Virus record (IMG/VR): IMGVR_UViG_3300042451_000363
Coordinates: 1-27,031 of that record
Source of the DNA: a virus
DNA length: 27,031 nt
Direction: 5' to 3' (one strand)
Part shown: positions 19,750-23,706 of the stretch, piece by piece
Layout: each line of letters begins with the position of its first letter
How positions within the stretch are numbered: position 1 is the stretch's first letter
The notes under the pieces: generated by a model
Databases searched by the model: none
Told to the model about the DNA's origin: nothing
What the model saw: only the letters and a program-made list of their open reading frames with translations
Position numbers and translations under genes: made by a program

Positions 19750-19784
19750 AGCTCTTGGGTCTAGTATCCAAGAGCTTTTTCTTA
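19750..19784 (+). terminator. Intrinsic terminator after the 93-aa gene
   Basis: AGCTCTTGG (19750-19758) pairs perfectly with CCAAGAGCT (19768-19776) around a 9-nt loop, then TTTTCTTATT. This is a strong rho-independent terminator. Confidence 0.9.
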
Positions 19785-19801: not shown

Positions 19802-19846
19802 AAGCACCAAGAAATGTAGAGATACAAAGTATTGGTGCTTTTTTAT
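19802..19846 (+). terminator. Second hairpin with T-run, terminator-like
   Basis: AAGCACCAA (19802-19810) pairs perfectly with TTGGTGCTT (19832-19840) around a 21-nt loop and is followed by TTTTATTCTT. The loop is long for a terminator, but the stem and T-run are good. It lies about 25 bases behind the preceding terminator and just ahead of the tRNA-like RNA, so it may end a short transcript or back up termination. Confidence 0.55.
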
Positions 19847-19860
19847 TCTTATCAAAATAC

Positions 19861-20030
19861 TAGTCAGGTGGCTGAAAGAATAAAGCGCATCTGTTATCAC
19901 AGCATACATTGAATAATGTATGCGAGGTCGGGAGATCAACTTGTTGTTGATCGTAACCTTGGAAACCCGAGATGGCACAAAGTACACGTTGCAGGTTAAA
20001 GTCCTGTCCTGACTACTAATTAGTTCTTTT
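19861..20030 (+). ncRNA. tRNA-like structured RNA with an expanded anticodon region
   Basis: An acceptor-type stem forms between AGTCAGG (19862-19868; 8 bp with T19861) and CCTGACT (20008-20014). A T arm abuts it directly: GCAGG (19991-19995), loop TTAAAGT, and CCTGT (20003-20007). TG fills positions 8-9, and a 3-bp D arm (GCT 19871-19873 with AGC 19884-19886) follows. CATCT (19888-19892) pairs with AGATG (19970-19974) as an anticodon stem, but 77 nt lie between instead of 7. The insert has hairpins at 19902-19923 (9-bp, GAAT loop) and 19934-19952 (7-bp), and TCGGG/CCCGA pairing. The variable region is 16 nt, class II size. The D loop lacks GG and the T loop has A for C56. A T-rich tract follows at 20025. 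The 3' end is not CCA. Confidence 0.65.
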
Positions 20031-20084
20031 TTTATAGGCAATGATTGTTAGCATCGTCAAAAAAATACGATCAAATTGCAAATT

Positions 20085-20126
20085 ATATCTATAAGCTCGA
20101 ATAGATATGATAGACTTTACAAGTCT
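20085..20126 (+). promoter_or_regulatory. Tandem hairpins in the leader of the 171-aa gene
   Basis: ATATCTAT (20085-20092) and ATAGATAT (20101-20108) form a perfect 8-bp inverted repeat with an 8-nt loop; AGACTT (20112-20117) and AAGTCT (20121-20126) follow with a TAC loop. They lie 56-97 bases upstream of the ATG at 20182. Such leader hairpins may stabilise mRNA or regulate translation. Function is inferred. Confidence 0.45.
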
Positions 20127-20181
20127 GAACTCCAAGAGCAAAACAAACATTTATTTATTTATCTATTTAAAATTTATTATT

Positions 20182-21604: not shown

Positions 21605-22099
21605 ATGGAACCGTTTAGAAATATGCTTATGATATTCATAGGCGCATCAATGAGTGTACTGCTTATGTCTGTAAGTATCGACACAAAACCTAAAGAAATA
21701 GTAAAGGTTAAAACTAAAGTGATAGAGGTGCAACCACAAGAGATTAAATTCTCTGAAGCTAATCTTCTTAAATTATTACAAGAGCTAAATATTAAAAACT
21801 ACAGAATTATTTATGCTCAAGCAGTCTTAGAGACTGGACACTTTAGATCTAGATCTTTTACTCAAGGGAATAATTTATTCGGAATGAAAGTAGCTAAGTC
21901 TAGACCTACTACTAATTCTGGAGAGTATTTAGGACACGCAAAGTATAATTCTTGGCAAGAAAGTGTATATGACTATGCTTTGTATTACTCTAAATATCTT
22001 TCTAAGTTTAAAACTGAAGAAAGTTATTTTAACTATCTAAAGCAACACTATGCTGAAGACCCAAACTACATTAATAAACTTAAAAAAATCATGAACTAA
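21605..22099 (+). CDS. Membrane-anchored muramidase/glucosaminidase-type lysin
   Basis: A 164-residue lysis protein. Residues about 8-24 (MLMIFIGASMSVLLMSV) form an N-terminal membrane segment or signal anchor. A Lys-rich linker (KVKTKVIEVQPQEIKF) follows. The catalytic domain has YAQAVLETGHF with the likely catalytic Glu76, then GNNLFGMKVAKSR and WQESVYDYALYYSKY, typical of the FlgJ/glucosaminidase (LYZ2, GH73-like) family that cuts the peptidoglycan sugar backbone. With a signal anchor it could be exported without a holin and held on the membrane. Its stop codon overlaps the next ATG (TAATG), so the 72-residue protein is probably translated with it. Confidence 0.8.
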   Translation: MEPFRNMLMIFIGASMSVLLMSVSIDTKPKEIVKVKTKVIEVQPQEIKFSEANLLKLLQELNIKNYRIIYAQAVLETGHFRSRSFTQGNNLFGMKVAKSRPTTNSGEYLGHAKYNSWQESVYDYALYYSKYLSKFKTEESYFNYLKQHYAEDPNYINKLKKIMN

Positions 22100-22848: not shown

Positions 22849-23706
22849 ATGCTAGAGAAAGTAACTAGAAAAACGTTTACTATTAGAGAATCTGGTAGAT
22901 CTAGTGATTATATTACTCCATCGTTTGGTTATGGTTGTTTGCTACAATGTGGATATTGCTATATGAAACGACATAAACCTGAAGGTTTATCTGTTGCTAA
23001 GAATATAGGGGATATCTTAACTAGTATAAATAACCATGCATATTTCTATGCAGATGTAGAAAAACCTAATCAAACAGATGAGAAATACATCACCTATGAC
23101 ATAGCTTGTAACGAAGATTTTGCTTTGCATTCTAAATACTATCCTTGGCAGGATATATTTACATTCTTTAGGGATCACCCTGTAGCAAAAGCAACTCTTG
23201 CAACTAAGATTGTACCTATTAACTTTTTAGAATTTGATCCAAAATACAAGGTTCGTATAAGATTTAGTCTTATGCCTCAAAGAATCTCTGATATTTTAGA
23301 GCCAAATACTAGTAAGATAATAGATAGAATCAAAGCTATTGATGCTTTTATAGAATCAGGATACGATGTTCATGTGAACTATTCACCCGTGGTTATCTAT
23401 GAAGGCTGGCAGGAAGATTATAAAGAACTTTTTGAGATGATGAATAACTATGTGGACTACAAAGAATTAGTAAAAGCAGAGGTGATTTTTCTTACTCACA
23501 ATGAAAGTAAGCATCTTTATAATCTAGAAAAAAATATTCCTGGAGAAGAATTACTATGGACTCCTGAAATTCAAGAAAGTAAAATATCTCAGTATGGTGG
23601 TAGAAATGTTAGATACAAACATCATCTTAAAGCTGAGTATATTAAGGAATTTCGAGAAATTCATCGTAACTTAATCGACTGGAACATAATAAGATATATA
23701 TTCTAA
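22849..23706 (+). CDS. Radical SAM protein resembling spore photoproduct lyase
   Basis: A 285-residue radical SAM enzyme. Cys30, Cys34 and Cys37 (GCLLQCGYCY, CxxxCxxC) would hold the 4Fe-4S cluster that cleaves S-adenosylmethionine. The overall pattern follows spore photoproduct lyase (SPL): YDIACNEDF with Cys87 lines up with the lyase cysteine in its EAACTSD segment. RIRFSLMPQRISDILEPNTS matches the RFRFS..S....FEPGTS segment, and VVIYEGWQEDYKELFE matches IYRHEGWERGYFELF. The tyrosines around the third cluster cysteine are also kept. SPL repairs UV thymine dimers of spore DNA by radical chemistry. The N-terminus is shorter than the roughly 340-residue bacterial forms. Repair of phage DNA photoproducts is inferred, or another DNA modification. 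Confidence 0.8.
   Translation: MLEKVTRKTFTIRESGRSSDYITPSFGYGCLLQCGYCYMKRHKPEGLSVAKNIGDILTSINNHAYFYADVEKPNQTDEKYITYDIACNEDFALHSKYYPWQDIFTFFRDHPVAKATLATKIVPINFLEFDPKYKVRIRFSLMPQRISDILEPNTSKIIDRIKAIDAFIESGYDVHVNYSPVVIYEGWQEDYKELFEMMNNYVDYKELVKAEVIFLTHNESKHLYNLEKNIPGEELLWTPEIQESKISQYGGRNVRYKHHLKAEYIKEFREIHRNLIDWNIIRYIF

What the first reader, a model, noticed from the sequence alone, without database searches (positions are those of the whole stretch)
19861..20030. tRNA-like RNA whose anticodon loop is replaced by a 77-nt structured insert
Seen: an 8-bp acceptor stem (19861-19868 with 20008-20015) and an abutting 5-bp T arm with a 7-nt loop. There is also a D-arm-like element, a 5-bp anticodon-type stem (19888-19892 with 19970-19974) and a 16-nt class II-size variable region. 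The stem encloses 77 nt with two perfect hairpins and a TCGGG/CCCGA pairing. The D loop lacks GG and the T loop has A in place of C56, so both partners of the elbow contact are lost together. There is no CCA. Simple removal of an insert gives no normal anticodon loop with purine 37, and the insert is far too small for a group I intron. Inference: a phage RNA that mimics or hijacks tRNA handling (RNase P, synthetase, ribosome), a tRNA with an unusual intron, or a decoy against host tRNA-cutting defences.
Basis: partly seen in the sequence, partly recalled or inferred. Interest (0 to 1): 0.8.

Follow-up and report, generated by a model that had tools for sequence, protein, structure and literature searches.

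The report
Phage tRNA scaffold carrying variable RNA
This is a phage RNA that keeps the elbow and amino-acid end of a leucine tRNA but has a 104-base folded insert where the codon-reading arm should be, and it belongs to a large family, not found described, of phage RNAs with the same frame and a different insert in almost every copy.

Summary
The element is real. An 8-bp acceptor stem, a D arm and an abutting T arm (19861-20015) enclose 104 nt with two perfect hairpins; standard tRNA tools and Rfam miss it. It is not a lone oddity. A covariance model built without it finds it at 39 bits (E 7e-8). At least 161 distinct relatives occur in Bacteroidota-type environmental phage contigs. They share one leucine-tRNA-like scaffold (acceptor, D arm, T arm, A73, A15-U48, D-loop GG, C56). 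The anticodon and variable arms are replaced by a hypervariable 17-160-nt insert. Only 2 of 161 have a canonical anticodon arm, against 117 of 137 ordinary tRNAs from the same loci. A15-U48 covaries to G15-C48 (p 1e-6), so the L-shaped elbow is under selection. The anticodon-type stem is not a family feature, which argues against an intron. Most likely these are non-decoding tRNA-Leu-derived RNAs, matured as tRNAs, that use the tRNA body as a stable (possibly leucylated) carrier for cargo RNA. The family and its non-decoding nature are well supported; transcription, charging and the role of the cargo are inferred. The window member has lost both partners of the elbow contact, as a few relatives have. 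I found no description of such a family.

The parts
19861..19868 (+). 5' strand of the acceptor stem: T-1 plus AGTCAGG (positions 1-7)
   Evidence: 8/8 Watson-Crick with 20008-20015; same sequence in most relatives
19871..19886 (+). D arm, 3 bp (GCT/AGC), loop GAAAGAATAA with A14 and A15 but no G18G19
   Evidence: sequence; aligned to the family D arm by model R1
19887..19990 (+). 104-nt structured insert in place of the anticodon and variable arms; T48 at 19990
   Evidence: insert fold z -2.6; hypervariable position in the family
19902..19923 (+). perfect 9-bp hairpin GCATACATT-GAAT-AATGTATGC
   Evidence: sequence and fold
19934..19952 (+). perfect 7-bp hairpin GATCAAC-TTGTT-GTTGATC
   Evidence: sequence and fold
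19991..20007 (+). T arm, 5 bp, loop TTAAAGT (A at position 56)
   Evidence: sequence; R1 match
20008..20015 (+). 3' strand of the acceptor stem CCTGACT and discriminator A73; C follows, no CCA
   Evidence: sequence; A73-C74 conserved in relatives
19750..19776 (+). terminator-like hairpin upstream; a second hairpin with a T run lies at about 19802-19845, ending some 15 nt before the element

Best explanation
The element is a gene for a non-decoding RNA derived from a class II leucine tRNA. The tRNA's acceptor stem, D arm and T arm are kept as a scaffold, and the anticodon and variable arms have been replaced by a 104-nt folded cargo. It is one member of a large phage family with a constant scaffold and hypervariable cargo. 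Inferred mechanism: the transcript is cut to size by host tRNA processing (RNase P at the 5' end, 3' trimming, CCA addition). The tRNA body makes it stable and visible to tRNA-binding proteins. Many members keep the full set that lets bacterial leucyl-tRNA synthetase charge a tRNA-Leu without anticodon or variable arms, so they may carry leucine. The cargo, not a codon, carries the specific function, most likely binding a host or phage target during infection. Shown: scaffold, selection on the elbow, absence of an anticodon arm, hypervariable inserts, cassette-like turnover. Inferred: transcription, processing, charging, role of the cargo.
For: Model R1, built from 32 relatives without the window, finds 19861-20015 at 39.1 bits, E 7.4e-8. 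Of 161 distinct relatives recovered from their 3' half, 122 have A15-U48 and 7 have the compensating G15-C48 (p 1e-6); 146 have the D-loop GG and 159 have C56; 2 have a canonical anticodon arm against 117 of 137 ordinary tRNAs in the same loci. When elements are found by D and T arm only, 135 of 161 have 7/7 acceptor pairs, and none has more than 5 when the 3' side is slid by 3. Inserts fall in 196 clusters of 224 and are modestly but significantly structured (mean z -0.62, p 1e-9), with compensatory changes in insert classes found more than once, e.g. L084/L043. One 131-nt class is 97% identical in 8 contigs whose flanks are related but rearranged. 13 of 20 relatives of the window phage carry 1-3 elements. 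E. coli tRNA-Leu lacking the anticodon and variable arms is still charged if A73, A15-U48, G18G19, A20a and the D/T-loop contact are present (PMC9976931); 89 of 161 have the complete set.
Against: No expression data. Two hairpins with T runs lie just upstream and no promoter match was found. The window member lacks G18G19 and C56, so by the leucine rule it should be a poor LeuRS substrate. No shared motif was found in the inserts. No antisense match to the neighbourhood or similarity to E. coli rRNA points to a target. This insert itself has no divergent homologue, so its inner fold has no covariation support.
Confidence: 0.55

Rival explanations
1. A precursor tRNA with an unusual intron: the insert is removed by an unknown activity and a normal decoding tRNA results.
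For: A 5-bp stem CATCT/AGATG can flank the insert in the window; members sit among ordinary tRNA genes in arrays.
Against: Across the family a 27-31 stem is no commoner than in shuffles (26% v 26%). Many inserts are too short for an anticodon arm plus a variable arm. No self-splicing intron family matches. In the window no excision restores a loop with purine 37.
Confidence: 0.1
2. An RNA decoy against host defences: the tRNA body attracts tRNA-cutting, tRNA-modifying or tRNA-sensing host proteins and the variable insert is diversified by the arms race.
For: Hypervariable inserts with a conserved tRNA elbow, many copies per phage and turnover between related phages are what a conflict would produce.
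Against: Known anticodon nucleases need an anticodon loop, which is absent. No link to a defence gene was sought or found.
Confidence: 0.2
3. Decaying tRNA genes: degraded pseudo-tRNAs kept by chance in recombining phage tRNA arrays.
For: The window member has lost the elbow contact; some relatives also have insertions in the D loop.
Against: Acceptor pairing, the Levitt pair (with covariation), C56 and the D arm are kept in nearly all members while the anticodon arm is almost always gone. A 131-nt class is 97% conserved, insert included, in 8 contigs. Random decay would not spare these parts.
Confidence: 0.1
4. A charged RNA used for its amino acid: the RNA is leucylated and sequesters LeuRS/EF-Tu or donates leucine, with the insert serving only to keep it off the ribosome.
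For: Most of the leucine identity set is conserved across the family.
Against: It does not explain why inserts are so diverse and sometimes individually conserved; the window member lacks GG and C56.
Confidence: 0.1

Closest known systems
Class II tRNA-Leu
   Same: D arm GGTGGCGGAATTGGTAGACGC, A73, A15-U48, G18G19-C56 and 5-bp T arm in most members
   Different: No anticodon arm or variable arm; a 17-160-nt hypervariable insert instead; the window member also lacks GG and C56
tmRNA
   Same: tRNA-like acceptor/T domain with the anticodon stem replaced by another structure
   Different: D stem kept, no G3-U70 pair, ARAGORN finds no tag-encoding tmRNA, far shorter
Pseudo-tRNA of Bacillus cereus (tRNAOther, PMC3399842)
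   Same: tRNA-like gene that does not act in translation
   Different: A single bacterial gene; no constant-scaffold, variable-insert family
Engineered tRNA scaffold (RNA of interest placed in the anticodon arm of a tRNA for stability; known to me from memory, not looked up)
   Same: Same architecture: tRNA body with cargo RNA in place of the anticodon arm
   Different: Man-made; here a natural family in phages, on a leucine-type scaffold

Membership tests
tRNA-scaffold family described here (model R1) | constant acceptor/D-arm/T-arm scaffold enclosing an insert | tested here: met
   39.1 bits, E 7.4e-8, window not in the training set
tRNA-scaffold family described here (model R1) | D-loop GG and C56 elbow contact (146/161 and 159/161 of members; common, not universal) | tested here: not met
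   window D loop GAAAGAATAA, T loop TTAAAGT. The contact is not universal: the 131-nt class lacks both too, and A56 goes with loss of GG (p 4e-5; related members, so not fully independent)
canonical (decoding) tRNA | 5-bp/7-nt anticodon arm with U33 and purine 37 | tested here: not met
   sequence; ARAGORN none; only 2 of 161 relatives have one
canonical (decoding) tRNA | Rfam tRNA score at or above 29 bits | tested here: not met
   18.8 bits
tRNA-Leu (identity elements) | A73 and A15-U48 | tested here: met
   A at 20015; A at 19876 and T at 19990
tRNA-Leu (identity elements) | G18G19 with U55/C56 | tested here: not met
   no GG, A56
tRNA-Leu (identity elements) | leucylation by LeuRS | not testable with these tools
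   needs an in vitro charging assay
tmRNA | tag reading frame and G3-U70 pair | tested here: not met
   position 3-70 is T-A; ARAGORN finds no tmRNA
group I or group II intron in a tRNA | intron core recognised by Rfam | tested here: not met
   no Rfam match in the window; in 16 relatives' loci only tRNA matches
known ornate phage RNAs (GOLLD, ROOL and others in Rfam) | Rfam covariance model match | tested here: not met
   no match among 4227 families

The most novel reading that the evidence does not exclude
Bacteroidota phages carry a modular arsenal of small RNAs built on one leucylatable tRNA scaffold. Each has a different, rapidly evolving cargo RNA displayed in place of the anticodon arm, exchanged as cassettes between phages and used to act on host (or rival phage) targets: a natural counterpart of the engineered tRNA scaffold.
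Probability: 0.4. Interest if true: 0.92.

Novelty: categorically new. Interest (0 to 1): 0.82.

Why it matters
tRNA finders either miss these genes or report them as tRNAs with impossible anticodons, so a large class of phage RNAs appears to have gone unseen. A natural constant tRNA scaffold with a hypervariable insert would be a new way for viruses to deploy RNA. It gives a direct test of which tRNA parts suffice for maturation and leucylation in vivo, and it raises a sharp question: what the cargoes bind.

Tried and rejected
Similarity search in GenBank phages with the bare window region gave only chance matches; with the family scaffold it gave tRNA halves and a tRNA-Leu fragment beside cyanophage integrases, not this family. 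The closest named phage, Cellulophaga phi14:2, has no such element by the same scan. Antisense matches of inserts to their own loci equal shuffles. Matches to 16S/23S rRNA in either sense equal shuffles; a GGGATAAC-like stretch seen in one insert was therefore dropped. No motif is shared among inserts beyond shuffles. An anticodon-type stem around inserts is not enriched, and pairing of the two insert ends is only marginally above controls. Eight literature searches found no description, but the library lacks most subscription journals and preprints.

Full report
What is in the sequence. The window is part of a crAss-like phage: the portal, terminase and major head proteins match PHROG families, and the terminase's closest named relative is Cellulophaga phage phi14:2, order Crassvirales. 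The element lies between the leftward structural genes and the rightward replication genes, just before a conserved 171-aa gene. The fold is better than shuffles for the whole (z -3.8) and for the insert alone (z -2.6). ARAGORN and Rfam do not see it; the tRNA model gives a sub-threshold 18.8 bits.

Relatives. The same position in relatives of the phage holds nothing, ordinary tRNAs, or other odd tRNA-like genes. One relative, L020, has 350 nt downstream of the gene an element that shares the acceptor and T-arm sequence of the window. In nearly all of them a matching 5' half (TAGTCAGGTGGCGGAATTGGTAGACGC or close to it) lies 31-168 nt upstream. The 5' half was not part of the search. The same pattern occurs in only 6 contigs of 84,980 cellular genomes, all in metagenome bins, four of them labelled Bacteroidota. 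The joined scaffold is not found in 50,697 GenBank phage records.

The scaffold is a tRNA under selection. With elements found by D arm and T arm alone, 135 of 161 have all 7 acceptor pairs; with the 3' strand slid by three bases none has more than five. In the 161 elements found from the 3' half, A14 (143), A15 (140), D-loop GG (146), C56 (159) and U48 (133) are conserved. The A15-U48 Levitt pair changes to G15-C48 in seven of the nine G15 elements (p 1e-6). This is covariation in a tertiary contact of the L-shaped elbow. Counts are of sequences, not independent events. A canonical anticodon arm is present in 2 of 161, against 117 of 137 ARAGORN tRNAs with other acceptors from the same loci. 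The region 27-31 finds a pairing partner no more often than in shuffles, so the inserts do not replace only the anticodon loop: the whole domain is gone.

The inserts. They run from 17 to 160 nt (median about 60) and fall into 196 clusters of 224. As a group they fold slightly better than shuffles (mean z -0.62, p 1e-9). Insert classes found more than once show compensatory changes: in L084/L043 a six-pair stem changes GAGCAA/TTGCTC to GTTGAA/TTCAAC. One 131-nt class is 97% identical in 8 contigs; its flanks are related but rearranged, as expected of cassettes gained and lost in arrays. Up to about a dozen R1 matches lie within 5 kb (L042), mixed with ordinary tRNA genes.

The window member belongs. 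R1, built from 32 relatives without the window, finds 19861-20015 at 39.1 bits, E 7.4e-8. Thirteen of 20 relatives of this phage carry one to three R1 matches. The joint loss of D-loop GG and C56 recurs: the 131-nt class has lost both, and A56 goes with loss of GG (p 4e-5; related members, so indicative only). Two other relatives of the phage carry a member in which the T loop reads GGCAGTT or GGCAGCT and the D loop has no GG.

How it may work. Bacterial LeuRS does not need the anticodon or variable arm. Truncated E. coli tRNA-Leu is charged if A73, A15-U48, G18G19, A20a and the D/T-loop contact are present (PMC9976931). Eighty-nine of 161 elements have this complete set. Hence the inference that many members are matured and leucylated like tRNAs but cannot decode, and that the insert is the working part, the tRNA body giving stability and a handle. 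The window RNA, without GG and C56, is predicted to be a poor LeuRS substrate, so for it the carrier role is more likely than a role of the amino acid. Expression is unproven: hairpins with T runs lie just upstream and no promoter match was found. No target was found by complementarity to the surrounding DNA or to E. coli rRNA.

Novelty. Eight searches of open-access papers found pseudo-tRNAs, tRNA introns and plant-virus tRNA-like structures, but no family with a constant tRNA scaffold and hypervariable insert. Preprints and most subscription journals are not covered.

Noticed in passing
window 20038-20144: Conserved 5' leader of the 171-aa gene in all close relatives: a 6-bp stem enclosing GCATCGTC-AAAAAA, with both-side changes at every pair (4-10 of 17 sequences), then a GACTTTATAAGTC hairpin. 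Candidate cis-regulatory RNA without an Rfam match.
   Followed up: partly
L016:1530-1613, L027:1680-1763, L028:1983-2067, L233: At the syntenic position, tRNA-like genes with another acceptor (GCTAAG) whose anticodon arm is a long hairpin closed by an AGGT tetraloop.
   Followed up: partly
L044, L074, L093, L138: Another tRNA-like class with a conserved insert (CTCGTCTCGTGGGCGCTGA ... GGTTGACCACAAAGCCGGC), other acceptors and G at the discriminator.
   Followed up: no
L121 (element starting 4211), L197 (minus-strand element starting 3729): Two unrelated scaffold elements share an additional insert in the D loop that itself resembles a miniature acceptor plus T arm, with compensatory changes.
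   Followed up: no
L057, L068, L076, L088, L105, L135, L141 inserts: Several inserts contain a second T-arm-like hairpin (GTTCGA in a 7-nt loop), as if tRNA pieces were recombined.
   Followed up: no
L232, L236 (element at 1501-1655): Near-identical scaffold element with T loop GGCAGTT or GGCAGCT and no D-loop GG: the elbow contact is replaced on both sides.
   Followed up: no
window 22849-23706 and 21605-22099: Spore photoproduct lyase-like radical SAM gene (Pfam SPL, 3e-23) and a glucosaminidase-domain gene (1e-18) in the early region.
   Followed up: no
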